Source: Desarmillaria ectypa (Eukaryota > Basidiomycota > Agaricomycetes > Agaricales > Physalacriaceae). From it: a stretch of DNA of 64,000 nt. Both the position numbers and the translations under genes were made by a program. The stretch spans positions 1 to 64,000 of the forward strand of contig JAUDYN010000009.1 in NCBI GenBank assembly GCA_030407005.1. Reading direction: 5' to 3'. This document shows positions 19,630 to 63,554 of the stretch, piece after piece. Each line of letters starts with the position of its first letter. The stretch's first letter is position 1. Under the pieces are notes generated by a model. That model was not told the DNA's origin. It saw nothing but the letters and a program-made list of their open reading frames with translations, and did no database searches.

Positions 19630-19877
19630 TGTTGGAATTTGAGAGTTAAGCCAAGATGATGGCAATCCGGCATCATGCCGAACTTGCTGATTAAGAGAGA
19701 AATATTAGGAAACTTGTAGAAGATTCTAGTACATTAGCATTTAGTATATAAGTAGGTACAGTAGTGTACATCTGCATGCGTTTGCAGAGCTCAGCCAAGC
19801 GCAATACTATTGGCCTGACACCGCGCATGTACTAACTGGGAACGAACTGATCTTCTCATCCCCTGTTTTTCACAACA
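19630..19877 (+). mobile_element. Solo LTR, family A, copy 1
   Basis: It is 248 bp, beginning TGTTGG and ending CAACA, and is flanked on both sides by the 5-bp direct repeat acttt. An internal TATATAAG gives a plausible promoter. TG...CA ends and a 5-bp duplication are typical of LTR retrotransposons, here most like Ty1/copia. No internal domain remains, so this is a solo LTR formed by recombination between the two LTRs of an element. It differs from the two copies near 54-56 kb at roughly ten positions. Confidence 0.9.
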
Positions 19878-25539: not shown

Positions 25540-26345
25540 ACATAGAGAGGCGCGTATTTCCCCCTAGCATCTAGAAGTTTCGCCCGCTGTTCTGCACTTC
25601 GTCCAGTTTAAATGGTACCGATACCTACCCGCCAGCTGAAACCAGACTTTTCCTCAAAACATGAGATACACATCAAAGCAAACACATTCAGGAAATCTGA
25701 CGCTCACCAAAGAAGCAGACTCCGTTGATCACATTATTAAATTTGACGACCATATGCTGCAATAAGCCCGCGATTCATGTTACAAGGCAAATGGTCGCTG
25801 GCCATAGATTCGAGAAGCTTCGTCAACCACAAGATTCCTCGGTGGTACTAGGTCAAATATCCCGTTTTGATCGAATGCTGGATTCGAGACCATGCTCAGC
25901 GTTCATAGGATAATGCTCGATACGCCGATAGTCCTTCGAATTGTTCAGAATCTCGTCCCCACGAAACAATCTCTCCTTAATGTTGATGTTCATGCCTGTT
26001 TAACGGGAAATCAGCCGCCACTGGCTTTTTCGGGATTCGTTGCCTTCTTTCTACCCATGACTTTAACACTGGTCCCCGTTCCGTAGAAGGGACCAGAGAG
26101 TTCGCTTCCCGTAAACATTTGTTGGTGATCTTTCGGATTCGCGACCATCAGAGGTAGTCAAAACGACCGCAAGCTTTCACTATCATGTTAATAAGTGGAA
26201 CTTGAAAGTGCGTACATGTCTACTTGCACGGACTCCTGTCTTGAAACGGGAATTGTATAGCTGCAGTTGGCCGTTGCTATTCATATTGACTTTGGTGAAG
26301 TCATGTATTCATGGGAGTACGACGGTAAGAAAGGAAGCGAAATAC
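25540..26345 (-). pseudogene. Degraded, internally deleted copy of the 34-37 kb helicase
   Basis: Several blocks match the helicase gene at 34121-37379 in the same orientation and order. 25540-25590 matches about 34575-34630 (tttccccct.gcatc). 25625-25660 matches about 35110-35145 (cctacccgcca.ct.aaaccaga). 25680-25990 matches about 35450-35780 (agaagcttcgtcaaccacaa, cgaaacaatctctcc). 26050-26100 matches about 36330-36380. 26220-26310 matches about 36530-36620 (gccg.tgctattcat). Between blocks large parts of the gene are missing, and the frame is broken throughout. No functional product is possible. Confidence 0.85.
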
Positions 26346-34120: not shown

Positions 34121-37100
34121 TCACTTTTCCCGCGACGCTAGAAGCACAAATCTATTTACAGGTGTCTTACGCATGATCATGCCACCACCAGTCTGGACCT
34201 TTCTTTTCCGACCTACGGCAACGGTCCAGTCTCCTTCAGGTTTTTGAACTGATGACGTTTTCATTCCTTTTGGTACTCGTACTCGCGGCGAGCCTGAAAG
34301 GCTCGATGGTGCAGAACTCGGTGGAATCGTCGTAGTCACCATACGAGCTGGTATAAGAGCAGCGTCTCGATAATTTCGCGTTCTTGCACTCCCTATATTG
34401 CTCGGAGCCAACGTCAACACTGAAAACTTTTGTGATAGACCCGGGCCAACGGCTGAGAAAGTGCTAGTTCCTGAAGTAGTCCCAACACCAACACTTCGAT
34501 GTTGACTCGGAAAAAGTGCTTTGACGTCAAAAGTAGGATATCTCCCATCCAGTTGAAGCGATGCGGGAGAGGTATGAAGAGGTGCGTGTTTCCCCCTGGC
34601 ATCAGGAAGGTTTACCCTCTGTTCTGCAACAGCCGTCCATTCTATCCAGTGTCTACCACGAGCCAGTTTACCAACGAGAGTCGATTGGCCGGGGCCCGAG
34701 ACGAAACTGCGGCTCGCGACGATAACGAGGCCTCGTCGGCACCGCGTAAGCATGACGTTCATTCGCTGGTCGGAGCGTAGGAATCCGGGTTCCCGGCATC
34801 GCACAACAGAAACTAAGACGACGTCTGCTTCATTTCCTGTACACATACCATAAGTTTAGAGTTCGTACACCACTTTAACGGCCGATTACCTTGAAAGCTG
34901 TCAACATTGAACACACGCTCCCACGGAAGGTTATTGTTCTTGAGTTCTCTCTCTATGGCGGCCCTTTGCGCGTCGTATGGCGTGATAATGCAAAAGTTAC
35001 GGTCTTTGTAATATAGCTTGACCAGATGGACAATTGTGCGGACCTCAGAGTCGTTCTAAAACCAGATATTGATGAATTGCGACCCCGTGAGATGACTGGA
35101 CAAAAAACCTACCCGCCAACTAAAACCAGAATTTTCCTCCGTTCCTGTTTTAGTGTCAATAAATGCGACACAGGATGGGTCTTTTATCTCGTGCTCTGAA
35201 CGAAGTCGATTATTGTAGACTTCTCGTGAAATGAACTCTCCAAGTGGATGCGGCATGCGATCTGCAGAGATGAGCTACCTACTACCGGTGCCATTGCTAA
35301 TAGACTCACACTGAATGTTTAAAAAGTGCGACTCATCCTTCAGGTGGTCAATGTCAAAGATACATTGCATCGACGGAGCCTTGTCTTTCCCGTATGGCGG
35401 TACTAAGCAATAAAAAGTGAGCTATGTATTGACACAAAGTTATTCAGGAACACTGACACTGTTTCGGATCTCCAAAGAAGCAAACTTTTGTCATCACGGT
35501 CCGAAATTTGAAGAATATATGCTGCGATGAAGTCCAGCCATGTTTGGATCTCAAAGTGAATTGTCACTGACCATATACTCGAAGACATTGATCTGAGAAG
35601 CTTCGTCAACCACAAGATTCCTCGGCGGTACAAAGTCAAACATCCCGTTTTGGTCCAGCGCCGGGTTTGAAAGCATGCTTAGTGTTGATAGGATAATGCT
35701 CGATGTGCCGATGGTAATTCCTAGGTCCTTCGGATTGTCCGGAAGCTCATCGCCACGAAACAATCTGTCCTCAATTTTGGTGTAGAGATGTTCATGCCTA
35801 TACAATGGGAAATCAACGAGAATGAATAGCAAAATGAGGCCTTCACCCACCATTCGACGTAGAATTCCTTAGATACAATGATCTTGAAATCGACGTTGGA
35901 AGATGCCAGTTTCTCTGCAATATTCTTCACAGCGACGTTCGAATGAGCGACAATCCACGTTGGCGATTTGATCGGATCCCAGATGGCAGCCGCTGCGGAA
36001 ATGGTCGATGTTTTACCGGTTCCAGGTGGACCTGGTAAGATGTCTATATCAACATCCTATGCAGCCTCGCATGTCATTAATAGCTCCTCACCATGGACTA
36101 TGACAAGAGGTCGGTTAGACACCATGGCTGATACTACTCTTTTCTGCGAATCGTTCAGCTTCCCAGCCAGAAAGGGTACTATCGGATCTACAACGATGCG
36201 ATCTTCCTCGTCTTTCTCGTTTGGAAACCAGAGCATCCTCACGAATTTTGAATGCCTAAGATGACAATCGCCCTGTAACGCATGAAGTAAAAGTTCATCA
36301 CGGGCCTTCTCGGTATTCGTTCCTCCTTCCCTGCCTATGACCTTGACACTCGCCACAGTTCCGTGGAAGTGACCAGAGACCTTGATCTCGGTTTTTTTCC
36401 CCTGAGATTTTTTCGGCGATCCTTTAATCTGGTAGCCGTCCGACGTGGTCAATATTACTGCCAGCTTTTGCTATAATATTAGACACAATTTGAACTCAGA
36501 GCACTGCTACTTACCTGTGAACTCGGGCGTATGCGTGTATTGAAACGAGAATTGTGCACTTCAAGTCGGCCGCTGCTATTCATGTTCGCTTTGGAGAAGT
36601 CGTTGGAGATCTCCGTAGGTTTGGCACGCTGTAGAGTATCGGCCTCGGATAACAGGCGACCTAAGCATTCGAGAACCTTTGAGATTATTTTAATCACTAC
36701 AATATGAACTATTCAAGGGAAAGCATAATTTACCTCCCGCTTCATCCATCGAGTCTCGATCGGCCTGATAAGGGGAAGAACGTTCATATTCCTTCTGAGA
36801 ATACTACGTCTTATACGTGAGAGTAAGCGGCATGAAGAGGTATGGCAAGCCTCACGTAACAGAAATCCATGCCCGAAGGCAAACTTTCCGGATACTTTCA
36901 TCTACCGCCTCGTTCAACTTGTCGTTCCACAGACTGTCCACCGCGAAACCATCTATTTTGGTTGCCATCGTTTCAGAGAGGAGCATCGACGGATAATAGG
37001 GATTGCTGGGAGATTTCGAACGAAAGGTAGACAGGTCGATAGCCCGAACGTGATAGTTCAAATGACAAAACAGGCGGATTGAAAGTCGTGGCATATTGAA

Positions 37101-53509: not shown

Positions 53510-54326
53510 TCACAGCCTTGATATATATTCCATCAAGATGCCGGACCACACAAGGAAACCGAGGGAGAACCCGTTAGAATGGAACTGAAGTACGGTTAGC
53601 ACGGGGCGCGGAGATCCGATCAAACACTGACATTTTCCCAGCAGATCGCAGGATTATTTGGATCTGTACGATTTAACTGCCACATCAAATGCATCGAGGA
53701 ACCGCAAACACTGAGAAGGAAATACGGAAGACCGAAACCGAGATACCTGCCGCATTGGATAAGAGAAAGGACGAAGAAACATCCAAAGCATGCAAGCAGA
53801 GTCTTCAGGTGGTGTCGGAATAGGAGAGCTGTAGACTTTACGCCAGCTTTAACATCGTCGGTCATATCCTGACATCTATAGATAGTGTCTAAAGCAATAA
53901 TTCAGTTGCTGCGAACTCTCTCAGGGAGTCACACATACCAAACCAAATCGTCCACCTGTCAGCTTGATATGAATCCCTGGAAGGCATGTCAAAGAAGCTA
54001 CTTACGACCAAGATCCCGCAAAAAGAACAGTGCAAGCACCGGGAAAAGAGTTCGCCGTCGTGCCCAAGCAATGGGGACACCGATAGCCGTGATAGTCACT
54101 ATACCAATATAATTGGCACATAGAGTACGATAATATCACGAGAGCGTACCAAGACAAGCTTGAGGCCAGTATGTGATACGTTTCAATAAGGGATAGATTC
54201 CTAGTAGCGGAAATAAGTCCAACAAAGCAAGCCAATATCTATATACACGTCACTTGGGTATTCATTGGATAAGAAACAGCACAAGAAAAACAGCTTACGC
54301 CTATTTTTGAAGCCTAGATATGAAAA
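53510..54326 (-). pseudogene. UbiA-type prenyltransferase, C-terminal half
   Basis: Read on the minus strand from 54326 to a TGA at 53512-53510. It carries YPLLKRITYWPQACLG, the second aspartate-rich motif (DTIYRCQDMTDDVKAGVKST), LPYFLLSVCGSSMHLMWQL, and a last exon with HSNGFSLGFLVWSGILM. UbiA enzymes transfer a prenyl chain to an aromatic acceptor inside a membrane. Lesions: the 5' half is missing from this strand; a TAG (54303-54301) lies in frame just after the LTR; and a frameshift near 54,020 separates two family-like frames. The other half is at 55209-55748 on the plus strand, beyond an LTR. Confidence 0.88.
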
Positions 54327-54574
54327 TGTTGGGATTTGAGAGTTGAGCTGAGATGATGGCAATCCGGCATCATGCCGAACTTGCTGATTAAGAGAGAAAT
54401 ATTAGGAAAGTTGTAGAAGATTCTAGTAAATTAGTATTTAGTATATAAGTAGGTACAGTAGTGTACATCTGCATGCGTTTGCAGAGCTCAGCCAAGCGCA
54501 ATACTATTGGCCTGACACCGCGCATGTACTAACTGGGAACGAACTGATTTATTCATCCCCCGTTTTTCACAACA
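54327..54574 (+). mobile_element. Solo LTR, family A, copy 2
   Basis: It is 248 bp with TGTTGG...CAACA ends. The left flank is gaaaa and the right flank ttaag, so it lacks its own target duplication. It is identical to the reverse complement of 55749-55996 except at one position (247/248). See the findings for the exchanged flanks. Confidence 0.93.
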
Positions 54575-55208
54575 TTAAGATCGGTGACGGTTCATGTTGA
54601 GGAGTAATTAATTATATATCCCGAGTACTAGGCAGAGATTCGTGACCTTGCAGTGGGCCAGCCAAGGATCCTTTTCGGAGAAATTGCCAAGGAAACACCA
54701 GATATTTGGGGCATTCGACCTCCTACTGGGAATTACAGGATACTGTTTTTCCATTCATATGAAGACCTAGAAGGCAGAAGTCTAATTAATGCCATAATTA
54801 TCATCACACGACAAGATACCTAGTCCTGGTGATGTGAGTCTATTATCTTCGATGTGTGACGATTCGGAATTAAGCCAAAACTTGGCTATAGTTGGCAATG
54901 CCTTTCTGTTTCTTCCATTGGCCGTCGCTTTTTCTCTCCCACTGTACTGGCACAGTGACCTCTTTAGCGAGATATCAGCTGAAATCTTCTGCATCTCGTG
55001 ACCCAAGGACTTACGTATGCTTCGTACTAACCGCAACATTCCTCCGGGACCTTCTAAACATGCCAGTGGTTCATGAGTGGATCCTTAGAGTCAAATTCCA
55101 TTGGTCGATAATACCTTATAACGCGAGCTACACAAGATGTTCTGAGTCAAGTTCATTAATGCTCCTCACTACTTCGACCAAGTTCTTACGCGACTCGTAA
55201 TATTCGTC
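54575..55208. other. Inverted segment, 5' flank of the prenyltransferase
   Basis: Non-coding as far as I can tell. It is the upstream part of the prenyltransferase gene, carried inside the flipped 1.17-kb segment. Before inversion it would have lain next to the P450. Confidence 0.5.
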
Positions 55209-55748
55209 ATGTTCACTAAGTTTGACCTTGCTCCTTGGGTAAGAATTCTTGTATAGTATAACTATCTCGACTGATGAGGTTGGTAGATTGCACTGACGAG
55301 AGTTGAAAATTTTGCGGGAACTATGCTGGTTTTTTGGCCATTCGCATGGGCCCTTACCATGGCTTCTTGCGTTACTCTTCCATCGATTTCGACTTACAGT
55401 ACCAGCTTCGCTTTTGCCTTTGTGGGAATTTGCGTGTCACATAGGTGAATATCTCGATGTTCCTTTGTGCTGTCGTCTTGCTGACTCTGGCAGTAATTTT
55501 TCTATCCACGATCTGATCGCTTGTTGACTTTCACTTGTCTAGGTGGAGGATGCATCTGGAATGATATACCCGATAAAGAAATCGACCTGAAAGTTGGTTA
55601 GTCTATCCGGTAGCATTTACGGGTAGTGATATCCATTGCTAAGAATTCTTTAGAGAGAACAAAAAATAGGCCCATTGCCAGCGGGGCCACATCCGTACCA
55701 AGCGCGTTGGTCTTTCTAGGATTTCATATAGTTGTTCTACTCCTTTTC
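55209..55748 (+). pseudogene. UbiA-type prenyltransferase, N-terminal half
   Basis: Exons at 55209-55238, 55287-55444, 55543-55596 and 55654-55748. The landmarks are VENFAGTMLVFWPFAWALTM, the first aspartate-rich motif GGCIWNDIPDKEID, and ERTKNRPIASG...ALVFLGFHIVVLLLF, where the LTR begins. The 55444/55543 junction does not keep frame with the obvious splice sites, so there may be an indel. The reading direction is opposite to the C-terminal half at 53510-54326. The two aspartate motifs needed for catalysis are thus on separate fragments, and no intact enzyme can be made from them. Confidence 0.88.
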
Positions 55749-55996
55749 TGTTGTGAAAAACGGGGGATGAATAAATCAGTTCGTTCCCAGTTAGTACATG
55801 CGCGGTGTCAGGCCAATAGTATTGCGCTTGGCTGAGCTCTGCAAACGCATGCAGATGTACACTACTGTACCTACTTATATACTAAATACTAATTTACTAG
55901 AATCTTCTACAACTTTCCTAATATTTCTCTCTTAATCAGCAAGTTCGGCATGATGCCGGATTGCCATCATCTCAGCTTAACTCTCAAATCCCAACA
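55749..55996 (-). mobile_element. Solo LTR, family A, copy 3 (inverted)
   Basis: It is 248 bp in inverted orientation relative to copy 2. The left flank is ttttc and the right flank cttaa. It ends 15 bp before the ATG of the P450 gene and so sits in that gene's promoter. Confidence 0.93.
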
Positions 55997-56011
55997 CTTA
56001 ACTCGACTGGA

Positions 56012-58004
56012 ATGCTTGTTATCGAAATCGCTGCGGGTATTACTTCTGCTTTGACTTTAACGGTCCTGAGTTTTGTCCTGCTTCGGAAGCCAGTATCGGC
56101 CGTTAAGTTCCCTCCGGGGCCAACCGGTTTCCCAATAGCAGGATGCGCTTTTTTGATGCCTACTCAGAATGAGCACAAGACTTTCTGTCGATGGGCTGAA
56201 GATTTCGGACGTATAGTTGGGCTCAGGATCTTTGGAAAAAAAATTGTCCTTCTGAATACGTCTGAGGTTGCTAGCAAGCTGCTGAACATGAGGGGCTCAG
56301 TATACTCAAACAGGCCTAGGTTTCCAATGCTCGAAATGTATGTTACGGCCCAATTCCACTTAAAATCAAGCTGAGAAACCGGCGTTACAGGATGGCATTC
56401 CCGAAATGGAATATCGGTATCATGAATACGGGAGACACCCATCGTTTAGCGCGGCAAATGTTGGGACAGTCATTGAACCCCAAGTCCATTCAGATCTACC
56501 ATGACATCATGGCCGACGAAATACAACGTCTCCTGAAATATCTTCGTGACACGCCTTCTCAATACTCAAGACACTTGCGCCGGTAGGTTTTAGACATCAG
56601 TTTGCGCAGTGGAATGGCTAATGGTCATATATATATCAGCTCAAATGCGAACACCATCCTTAGGATGTTTTATGGTGTGCAACCAGACCATGTCGATACC
56701 GAGGACCTCGTAACTCTCAACAACCAGCTTTTGGATGCTATGTCTTTAGCTGGTGCCCCTCTCGCATATCTTGTCAATACATTCCCCATACGTTTGTTCA
56801 ACACAATATGTCAGCATTGCTGTATCTCTGATAGATCTCCAGTGAAATACTGGCCACAGGTCTTACCAGGTGACGGATTCAAAGCAGATGTTGAGGTTGG
56901 CTCAAACTTGTTGAAGACTTGTTTACGATACCAATTGTCTCAGCAGATGGAAAGAAGGTAAGTTCTCTGCACTCGAATCCTATCATTTGCTACACATACA
57001 TAGTATTTCTAACTCCTTTCTTAGAACATGCCATTTCTTTCCATGCACGATAGCGACCGGGCTCAATGTGATCTCACTAGATCTGTCGCAGCGACAGCTT
57101 TTTCTGGTACGTCACTTTCACTATGCCTGGATTCCAGATGTTTGACATATATCATAGCGGGTGTAGAGACATCCACGTCGATTTTATTATCATTTGTCCT
57201 CGCCATGGTTCTTTTCCCGGATGTACAACATAGCGCTCAGTCTGAAATTGATATGAAGCTTGGTGGTAGATCTCCGACCATCAAAGATCGCTTCAAGACT
57301 CTGCCTTACGTAGATGCTATCCTTTCCGAGTGCTATCGATGGGCCCCTCCTGGTCACTTAGGTGAGTTCAAGGCGACTTTGTACTCTCTTTTATGAAACC
57401 TTTCCATATTTATCCGTAGGACTCCACCATTGTCCTTCCCGGGATGACATATTCGACGGTTATCTCTTGCCTGGGAGCGCAGTGGTTCTGCCAAATATCT
57501 GGTAGATTGTTAACATCCCAAAAACGAAGCCATAGTATCTCAAGGTGTCTCTAGGAATATTCTTCATGACCCGAGCCTCTACAGAGACTCGATGGACTTT
57601 GTACCCGAACGTTTCTTAGGCCCAAACCCTGAACCTGATCCCCGAGAACACGTATATGGATACGGGCGCCGGTCGGTCGATTTGTATTCCTCCAAATGAT
57701 GCTTTGTTCACACTTGAATAATTGCAAGCATTTGCCCCGGTCGCTACCTGGCTGAAGATAATTTATGGCTAGGAATGGCTAACATGCTTGCCATATTCCA
57801 ATTCAAGATGGCTGTTGATGCTGACGGTCATCCTATCAGCCCAGTTATCGAATTTACATCGGGTGTAATGAAGTTTGTTTCATTCCTTTGTTACTCTTCG
57901 ATATTTCCTAATTCTGAGCCCTTCAAAGTAGACCTAGGGATTTCCAATGTCTGATCGAGCCTCACTCTCCAGAGGTAGTCACATTCAATTCTGATCTATC
58001 TTGA
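56012..58004 (+). pseudogene. Cytochrome P450, probably non-functional
   Basis: ATG 56012 begins an N-terminal membrane anchor (ITSALTLTVLSFVLL) and the hinge FPPGPTGFPIAGC. Exons 56012-56337 and 56391-56582 join cleanly. Later landmarks are LKYWPQVLPGDGFK, the I-helix AATAFSAGVETSTS, the K-helix ExxR (ECYRW), PERF, and the haem motif YGYGRRICPGRYL. The haem motif has Tyr where Phe is usual; its Cys is present. The C-terminus ends at a TGA at 58002-58004. Two junctions cannot be read without a frameshift: near 56,895 (FKADVE against GWLKLVEDL) and at about 57,505-57,560 (VLPNIW against VSRNILHD). P450s add oxygen to substrates; a tailoring role with the prenyltransferase is inferred from position. 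Unrecognised splicing is the alternative to decay. Confidence 0.75.
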
Positions 58005-62251: not shown

Positions 62252-63554
62252 TCAGATGCATTTACACTTTCCAGCGTAAACACAATCCCTCCAAGCAGCG
62301 TACATGAGAACCACAAAACACTGTCCTTCTGGGCTTCCAGCGGTCCATGGCTTAGTATCACCCCACCCCAGTGGATTAACGGCAGGTGTGACCGTCCCAT
62401 TCGTAATAATATGTGGATTTCCCTCGGTGTCATTCCCCGCAAGAGTTGCGCGAACTTGGTCAGCCCACAAGACATAGGTCTGATTAAAAAGATTAGGCTG
62501 CAAGACAGCCATACGATAGATAACGGAAGCAATCATCGATGTACCACTGATCTCGCCGAACCCGTGGCCGTCTTCCCATACGTCGTCAAGATAATTCCGG
62601 GCCAGTCCGCCAATTATTGGTGATCCAATAACTCCGTCGACTATTTCTTTGATCCATTCCGTCAAGTTATCAATTGCTTCTTGGCGCCACGAAGCAAGTG
62701 TGGCCACTGGTGCTTTCATGATAGTCGCTAACACACGAGCCATTCCTCCAGCCGCCCAGCCATTCCCGGTGCTCCACAATCCAACATCCTGGCTCTGCGG
62801 ACCGATGATGTGCATCCATACACCATCGTAGGACTCAGAAGAAATATTAGTAGCTTGCAGCACTTCGCGATAAAGTCCACATTGTTTGTATGACTCGTGA
62901 AGAAGAGATACGTTTGACGTGTCAGCAGCGTAGTATGCGATGAATGGAGGTGCCATGTATAAGAAATCGTTCCTACGAGCTTTATCAGCCTGGCTGAAAT
63001 AATAAGAATGAAAAAGAAACACCAACCAGAGTTCAGCGACTGCCGCCCTCTGACTAATAGCACCATTCTCCCATCTCGGTGCCAGCTCCAGCATATATTC
63101 TATTTCCTCCCGAGCTCCATCCGCATATGTCTCGTTCGTCTTGCCAAGCAACCAAGCGAACACACCTAAGCTCGCCGGATCCCCAACCGCTCCGTCGCCG
63201 TTACTCAATCCGTTAGCCCCAACACCTAATGCAATCTTCTCTTTGGCATACGAGAGCGCTTTAACGGATGAAGGCAAGTACGACTCGGCCGGTAAAGGAA
63301 TTTGGCCGTAGACGGATATATTTGGGTTGTAGAGTTCGAGAAGCGCTTCAGAGGCGGTCCCGAATTCCCAGGAGTGTGAGGGAAGAGACTCTGCAAGAGC
63401 TGCAACCGAAGCGATGTCAAAGCCTGGAGAAAGGGCAAAAGGGTCTGTAGCAAATATCATCGGTGTGACCTGTAAGCAGACATGATGAGCAACGGCGTTT
63501 AGCATCTAACGGAAGAAGACCGACCGCCAAGAAAAATAACAGGCCTTCAAACAT
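62252..63554 (-). CDS. Secreted six-hairpin glycosidase-like protein (GH88/GH105-like)
   Basis: Three exons, 63554-63525, 63469-63027 and 62972-62252, total 1194 nt or 397 residues. The first exon encodes only ten residues of a signal peptide (MFEGLLFFLA). The second intron is exactly 54 nt without a stop, so the frame stays open if it is retained. Splicing restores AELWNDFLYMAPP. The sequence resembles unsaturated glucuronyl/rhamnogalacturonyl hydrolases: NGDGAVGDPASLGVFAWLLGK, YDGVWMHIIGP, STGNGWAAGGMARVL, then GTSMIASVIYRM and a C-terminal WGDTKPWTAGSPEGQ. The substrate class is inferred from the family and is uncertain. It seems intact, unlike its neighbours at 53-61 kb. Confidence 0.82.

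What the first reader, a model, noticed from the sequence alone, without database searches (positions are those of the whole stretch)
54322..56001. Inversion between two solo LTRs, proven by exchanged target-site duplications, cuts a prenyltransferase gene in two
Two 248-bp LTRs lie 1174 bp apart in inverted orientation and differ at one position. Around the left copy the flanks are gaaaa and ttaag; around the right copy they are ttttc and cttaa. Each LTR should have matching flanks. If the middle segment is flipped back, the left LTR is flanked by gaaaa/gaaaa and the right by cttaa/cttaa. The same flip places the UbiA N-terminal half (now + at 55209-55748) on the minus strand, directly upstream of the C-terminal half (- at 53510-54326). 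Two independent lines, flanks and gene order, thus give the same event.
Basis: partly seen in the sequence, partly recalled or inferred. Interest (0 to 1): 0.9.

Follow-up and report, generated by a model that had tools for sequence, protein, structure and literature searches.

The report
Repeat-mediated inversion splits fungal gene
In a mushroom genome, two copies of a short mobile repeat facing opposite ways appear to have recombined and flipped the 1.2 kb between them, leaving the halves of an already interrupted prenyltransferase gene on opposite strands; the event is very well marked but of a known kind.

Summary
Confirmed. Two 248-bp repeats (54327-54574 +, 55749-55996 -) are inverted, 1174 bp apart, and differ at one base. 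Their 5-bp target-site duplications (TSDs) are exchanged: each copy matches its own opposite flank at 2 of 5 bases and the other copy's at 5 of 5. Of 143 usable copies in the same genome, 133 keep their own TSD (at least 4 of 5). Leaving out pairs in which both keep their own, 2 of 10,153 pairs show a reciprocal exchange: this one and an inverted pair 1.8 kb apart on another contig. For the second, a paralogous region holds the unflipped order over the part that can be compared. The two UbiA pieces match residues 1-112 and 121-296 of one intact relative. This supports a crossover between inverted copies.

Corrections: the repeat insertion, not the inversion, interrupted the UbiA coding sequence; the inversion separated the halves. 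'Solo LTR' is inferred, since no copy was shown to adjoin an internal region.

Host: probably Desarmillaria ectypa. Exchanged TSDs at transposon-made inversions are already described (Galileo), so this is a new member of a known kind.

The parts
54327..54574 (+). left 248-bp repeat copy (solo-LTR type, TGTTG...CAACA)
55749..55996 (-). right 248-bp repeat copy, inverted, 1 difference from the left copy
54322..54326 (+). gaaaa: one half of the TSD of the insertion inside UbiA; its partner is ttttc at 55744-55748
54575..54579 (+). ttaag: one half of the TSD of the insertion upstream of P450; its partner is cttaa at 55997-56001
55744..55748 (+). ttttc: reverse complement of gaaaa, exchanged TSD half
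55997..56001 (+). cttaa: reverse complement of ttaag, exchanged TSD half
54575..55748 (.). inverted segment (1174 bp), found once in the genome
   Evidence: that it is flipped is inferred from the TSDs and UbiA order
55209..55748 (+). N-terminal half of a UbiA prenyltransferase gene, with introns; BLASTP to P0001 residues 1-106 (76 of 107 columns identical), reaching residue 112 in the multiple alignment
53510..54326 (-). C-terminal half of the same UbiA gene, with introns; P0001 residues 121-296 (126 of 176 columns identical)
54301..54303 (-). TAG stop in the frame continued from the N-half, before the first intron of the C-half, where P0001 has a sense codon
   Evidence: frame reasoning by eye
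54575..55208 (+). 5' region of UbiA carried inside the inverted segment; probably once the divergent intergenic region towards P450
   Evidence: inference and the flip
56012..57951 (+). cytochrome P450 gene (approximate extent, exons by eye); its likely ATG lies 15 bp from the right repeat copy
   Evidence: (PF00067 in two open stretches)
19630..19877 (+). third copy (11 and 10 differences from the left and right copy) with its own TSD ACTTT; not part of the inversion

Best explanation
Two copies of one repeat family inserted in opposite orientation: one in a coding exon of a UbiA prenyltransferase gene (TSD gaaaa/ttttc), the other 15 bp before the start of the divergent P450 gene (TSD ttaag/cttaa). 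A later crossover between the two copies, 1174 bp apart, reversed the segment between them. Shown: the inverted copies, the exact TSD exchange, the two UbiA pieces on opposite strands that together match one intact relative, and the rarity of such exchange in the family (one other pair). Inferred: that the flip was one homologous crossover, that the unflipped order is ancestral, and the consequences. The insertion had already broken UbiA; the inversion put the UbiA 5' region and N-half upstream of P450 on the same strand and left the C-half without that 5' region.
For: Exchanged TSDs at 5 of 5 on both sides. Control: 133 of 143 usable copies keep an own TSD of at least 4 of 5; 2 of 10,153 pairs are reciprocally exchanged (pairs in which both keep own TSDs left out), and both are inverted nearest neighbours under 2 kb apart. 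The second event, C1:32296-34600, has a paralogous unflipped stretch with its own TSD at C2:363816-364063: the first 597 of 1809 bases of its inner segment match in reverse at 87.8%, and the outer right flank at 79.6% over 323 columns. The UbiA pieces cover complementary parts of PF01040 (1-81 and 93-244) and of P0001 (1-112 and 121-296). Middle and both flanks were each found once, on megabase contigs.
Against: No uninverted allele, sister-species locus or reads could be examined for this locus. The two copies are too alike (1 difference) to show that each is a chimera. Six other copies of the 143 also have non-matching flanks without any exchange partner, so lost TSDs arise in other ways too. 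For the C1 event the remaining two thirds of the inner segment and the left flank have no match in the comparator apart from one 20-base hit, and the comparator's repeat differs from the C1 copies at 10 and 7 positions without a clear chimeric pattern. Other lesions in UbiA mean that the time order of insertion, stop codon and inversion is not fixed.
Confidence: 0.91

Rival explanations
1. Assembly artefact: the assembler placed the 1174-bp middle segment the wrong way round between two near-identical inverted repeats, so the true genome has the unflipped order.
For: The repeats are 248 bp and differ at one base, the classic setting for such an error.
Against: The genome is in 32 contigs, with pieces of up to 4.57 Mb among those seen, which suggests long reads (inference), and the whole structure is only 1.67 kb. 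The C1 pair differs at 7 positions, which makes a mix-up less likely there. The 4 informative inverted pairs 3.0-7.3 kb apart and one at 1.5 kb show no exchange.
Confidence: 0.05
2. Aberrant transposition: ends of two different element copies acted together and made the inversion during a transposition event, rather than a later crossover.
For: Such events are discussed for transposons (PMC2775673, passages).
Against: As described there, a hybrid element moves to a new site, rather than two existing TSDs being exchanged. Ends and TSDs here are LTR-like, and that such elements do not move by cut and paste is recalled.
Confidence: 0.03
3. The two UbiA pieces are separate genes or an independent duplication, and the flank match is coincidence.
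For: Other UbiA matches exist in the genome (15 matches, counting exons, 2 of them the window's).
Against: The pieces are complementary, equally similar (71% and 72%) to one protein, and abut at the repeats. A 10-base exchange has a chance of about 1 in a million per pair at equal base frequencies (arithmetic), and two of 10,153 pairs show 9 or 10 of 10.
Confidence: 0.01

Closest known systems
Inversion 2z3 of Drosophila buzzatii made by Galileo (PMC2775673; abstract and passages seen)
   Same: Two element copies in opposite orientation at the breakpoints with exchanged TSDs, explained by ectopic recombination.
   Different: There a transposon with 7-bp TSDs, non-inverted chromosomes with single target sites, and chimeric copies. 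Here a solo-LTR-type repeat with 5-bp TSDs, a 1.2-kb segment in a fungus, chimerism not decidable and no uninverted allele seen.
Second inverted pair in the same genome, C1:32296-32543(+) / C1:34353-34600(-)
   Same: Same family, inverted, 1809 bp apart, reciprocally exchanged TSDs (5 of 5 and 4 of 5).
   Different: A partly matching unflipped paralog exists (C2:363816-364063), the copies differ at 7 positions, and no clear gene was seen in it (open frames only, no family search).
UbiA prenyltransferase claS of Ampulloclitocybe clavipes (P0177)
   Same: Both pieces align (N-piece 54%, C-piece 46%); best named match of P0001.
   Different: claS is one continuous protein; the window's gene is in two pieces with a stop.

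Membership tests
Transposable-element-mediated inversion by ectopic recombination | two copies of one family at the breakpoints in opposite orientation | tested here: met
Transposable-element-mediated inversion by ectopic recombination | TSDs exchanged between the copies | tested here: met
   (5 of 5 both ways), control
Transposable-element-mediated inversion by ectopic recombination | copies are chimeric (halves exchanged) | tested here: inconclusive
   only one difference between the copies; both share T at positions 23 and 223
Transposable-element-mediated inversion by ectopic recombination | uninverted arrangement exists elsewhere | not testable with these tools
   the window locus is found once in G000 and no sister fungal DNA could be searched; for the C1 event a paralog shows it in part
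Solo LTR of an LTR retrotransposon | TG...CA ends and constant short TSD | tested here: met
   TGTTG...CAACA; 5-bp own TSD in 120 of 143 usable copies, 4 of 5 in 13 more
Solo LTR of an LTR retrotransposon | full-length relatives with an internal region between two copies | tested here: inconclusive
   none shown: 133 of 143 copies lie between own TSDs, and flanks shared at 19 of 25 bases or more occur only in four duplicated or paralogous stretches and one overlapping pair. Five integrase regions lacked the repeat, but no terminal repeats were found in them at all, so this says little. Copies with a changed 3' end were not surveyed
UbiA prenyltransferase (PF01040) | profile match above the curated cut-off | tested here: met
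   57.5 (N-piece) and 66.2 bits (C-piece) against a cut-off of 34.2
UbiA prenyltransferase (PF01040) | one continuous gene | tested here: not met
   halves on opposite strands with repeats at their inner ends, and a further in-frame stop

The most novel reading that the evidence does not exclude
Close inverted copies of this repeat family flip repeatedly in this fungus, so that the segment is a reversible switch: the UbiA 5' region alternately faces the broken UbiA gene and the P450 gene. Two of the three neighbouring inverted pairs less than 2 kb apart are in the exchanged state, and none of the four informative pairs 3.0-7.3 kb apart is, as frequent short-range flipping would give. The numbers are small.
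Probability: 0.05. Interest if true: 0.75.

Novelty: new member of a known kind. Interest (0 to 1): 0.4.

Why it matters
It is an unusually clean case in which sequence alone fixes the breakpoints and, through the TSDs, the likely ancestral order of a very small repeat-mediated inversion. A census of one repeat family's TSDs then found a second such event in the same genome, which suggests that exchanged TSDs can be used to count past crossovers between dispersed repeats in a single fungal assembly without a relative for comparison. For the UbiA/P450 pair it explains the odd gene arrangement. The principle itself is known.

Tried and rejected
Looked for an uninverted copy of the locus in the own genome: middle, left and right flanks were each found once. 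Looked for a full-length element of the family: five direct-oriented neighbouring pairs within 10 kb other than the window's right copy with C32:65586 are listed; the copies in them have own TSDs, or one is truncated (C27:596275), or one belongs to the exchanged C1 pair (C1:32296). An integrase family search scored 150 of 630 candidates; I then looked at 5 of the regions. None held the repeat (three had only a 14-base match), but my self-comparison found no terminal repeats in any of the five, so this negative is weak. 'LTR' stays an inference.

Considered a translocation record in the other copies without own TSD: of the 10 mismatching copies, 4 belong to the two exchanged pairs, one (C3:707062) looks like an own TSD with an extra base, and five (C1:714753, C1:4515474, C2:1416015, C12:1090055, C32:646346) stay unexplained, with no partner in the set.

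Rejected as evidence: the pair C2:1917745/1922056, which lies in a 563-bp inverted duplication (99.8%) with identical flanks, so an exchange there cannot be seen; L026/L039, which share the same TSD word; and two overlapping inverted pairs (C4:50/178, C29:3604710/3604901), each with a truncated or unclear copy. Rfam found nothing at gathering threshold in 50-60 kb.

Literature, nine searches, seen as listings except the Galileo paper (abstract and passages): solo LTR + inversion + target site duplication + ectopic recombination, 10 papers; 'exchanged target site duplications', 1; Desarmillaria ectypa, 7; solo LTRs + inverted orientation + inversion + TSD + fung, 0; Desarmillaria + Armillaria + transposable elements + genome assembly + LTR, 0; mismatched TSDs in endogenous retroviruses, 10 of 1,731 listed; clavilactone + prenyltransferase + cytochrome P450, 0; solo LTR without full-length in fungi, 5; clavilactone, 8 of 15 listed. 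These do not show that such fungal cases are unpublished.

Full report
What is there. The window is the first 64 kb of a 2,546,963-bp contig (C32) of a 40.6-Mb assembly in 32 contigs. A GH88-like protein encoded at 62255-63505 has as best match (96% identity over 96% of the query) a protein named from Desarmillaria ectypa whose contig has exactly the same length, 2,546,963, so the host is very probably D. ectypa (Agaricales, Physalacriaceae).

The two repeats. Copies of 248 bp lie at 54327-54574 (+) and 55749-55996 (-), separated by 1174 bp, with one difference at repeat position 19. A third copy at 19630-19877 differs at 11 and 10 positions from them and has its own intact TSD. Ends are TGTTG...CAACA. 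In the direction of the repeat the flanks are GAAAA|left copy|TTAAG and TTAAG|right copy|GAAAA. Each copy matches its own opposite flank at 2 of 5 bases and the other copy's at 5 of 5, both ways.

Control. A search with the 13-base 3' end of the repeat found 149 exact places in the genome, against 2 for the control pattern (split into 67 and 82). The set is biased to copies with an intact 3' end; the first DNA search had 297 candidates, of which 40 were scored. All 149 were examined with flanks (window, and regions fetched; analysis): 120 have a perfect own 5-bp TSD, 13 have 4 of 5, 10 do not match, and 6 are truncated or unclear and were left out of pair counts. Among the 143 usable copies (10,153 pairs), with pairs left out in which both copies have own TSDs of at least 4 of 5, two pairs reach 9 or 10 of 10 exchanged bases: the window pair (10) and C1:32296-32543(+)/C1:34353-34600(-) (9). 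Both are inverted nearest neighbours. Six further copies have non-matching flanks and no exchange partner; one of them looks like an own TSD with an extra base.

The second event. The C1 copies are 1809 bp apart. Elsewhere, at C2:363816-364063, a single copy with its own TSD (ctgta) sits in a paralogous stretch. The sequence on one side of it matches the first 597 bases of the C1 inner segment in reverse orientation (87.8%, 599 columns), and the sequence on its other side matches the outer right flank on C1 (79.6%, 323 columns). So the C1 inner segment is flipped relative to an arrangement that still exists, as far as it can be compared. The rest of the inner segment gave only one 20-base hit and the left flank none. 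The comparator's repeat differs from the C1 copies at 10 and 7 positions, and the two C1 copies from each other at 7, with no clear chimeric pattern. This supports the reading of exchanged TSDs as inversion independently of the TSD argument. It is not evidence about the window locus itself.

Distance. One search lists ten neighbouring inverted pairs within 10 kb. Two overlap and involve truncated or unclear copies, and one is an inverted duplication with identical flanks. Of the other seven, two are exchanged, both among the three pairs under 2 kb; the four at 3.0-7.3 kb are not (the C5 pair has similar TSD words, own 5 and 4 against exchanged 4 and 4). The numbers are too small for a claim.

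The gene. PF01040 (UbiA) is found on the + strand within 55209-55748 and on the - strand within 53510-54237 (P0001 by tblastn). BLASTP aligns the N-piece to residues 1-106 of P0001 (76 of 107 columns identical) and the C-piece to residues 121-296 (126 of 176). In the multiple alignment the N-piece reaches residue 112. P0001 is one continuous 296-aa protein of unnamed source. The few residues between the pieces are accounted for by the short exon end next to the left repeat. In the frame continued from the N-piece, this stretch has a TAG stop (54301-54303, - strand) where P0001 has a sense codon, before an intron starting at 54298; intact relatives exist. At one junction in each piece I found no canonical splice pair that keeps the frame, so the gene is probably decayed in more than one way; this rests on reading by eye. 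The best named match of P0001 is claS of Ampulloclitocybe clavipes; the window pieces are 54% (N) and 46% (C) identical to it.

What broke the gene. The insertion lies inside a coding exon, between codons matching P0001 residues 112 and 113. From the N-half the frame runs into the repeat for 28 codons to a stop (the open stretch ends at 55832). Because both copies present the same end, this was the same before the flip. So the insertion interrupted the gene and the inversion separated the halves. The other breakpoint repeat lies 15 bp before the likely ATG (56012) of a P450 gene (PF00067 in two open stretches). Flipping the middle back makes UbiA and P450 divergent genes with 54575-55208 between them. 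Now the UbiA 5' region and N-half read towards P450. An effect on P450 is inference.

The copies. The two window copies are each other's nearest relatives among the 143 (1 difference; next 2 for the left, 3 for the right). Both carry T at positions 23 and 223, a combination seen in 3 of 143 copies. Gene conversion or a common source copy could explain this, so the inversion cannot be dated from them.

Is it an LTR? The ends and the TSD fit. 133 of 143 usable copies lie between own TSDs. Shared flanks (19 of 25 bases or more) were found only in four duplicated or paralogous stretches and one overlapping pair. Five integrase-bearing regions lacked the repeat, but no terminal repeats were detected in them, so that test is weak. 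A short stand-alone element cannot be excluded; the inversion argument does not depend on this.

Known or new. Exchanged TSDs at inverted element copies are the stated signature of ectopic recombination for the Galileo inversion of Drosophila buzzatii (PMC2775673; abstract and passages seen). The present case meets the orientation and TSD criteria; chimerism cannot be judged and an uninverted allele was not available. It is a new member of a known kind.

Noticed in passing
G000 C1:32296-34600 (L063:7297-9601): Second inversion of the same kind in the same genome, with a partly matching unflipped paralog at C2:363816-364063 (L064).
   Followed up: yes
genome-wide, 149 repeat copies: On the 11 copy-bearing contigs over 1.9 Mb, 73 of 134 copies start within 400 kb of a contig end, which is 22.9% of their bases: enrichment near contig ends.
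   Followed up: partly
L082 (C2:1917625-1922423): A 563-bp inverted duplication (99.8%) whose arms each contain one repeat copy, about 4 kb apart.
   Followed up: partly
C1:714753, C1:4515474, C2:1416015, C12:1090055, C32:646346: Five copies with non-matching flanks and no exchange partner in the set; possibly products of recombination with unsurveyed copies.
   Followed up: partly
genome-wide: A 248-bp family with well over a hundred copies (median 97% to the query among copies with own TSD) and no full-length member found, although the genome has many integrase matches, some in long open frames.
   Followed up: partly
window 25803-25989 and 35586-35783: Diverged direct repeat pieces of 135 and 59 bp (82-83%) about 9.8 kb apart.
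   Followed up: no
window 62255-63505 (-): GH88-like gene; a second D. ectypa protein 80% identical lies on a contig of the same length (P0061).
   Followed up: no
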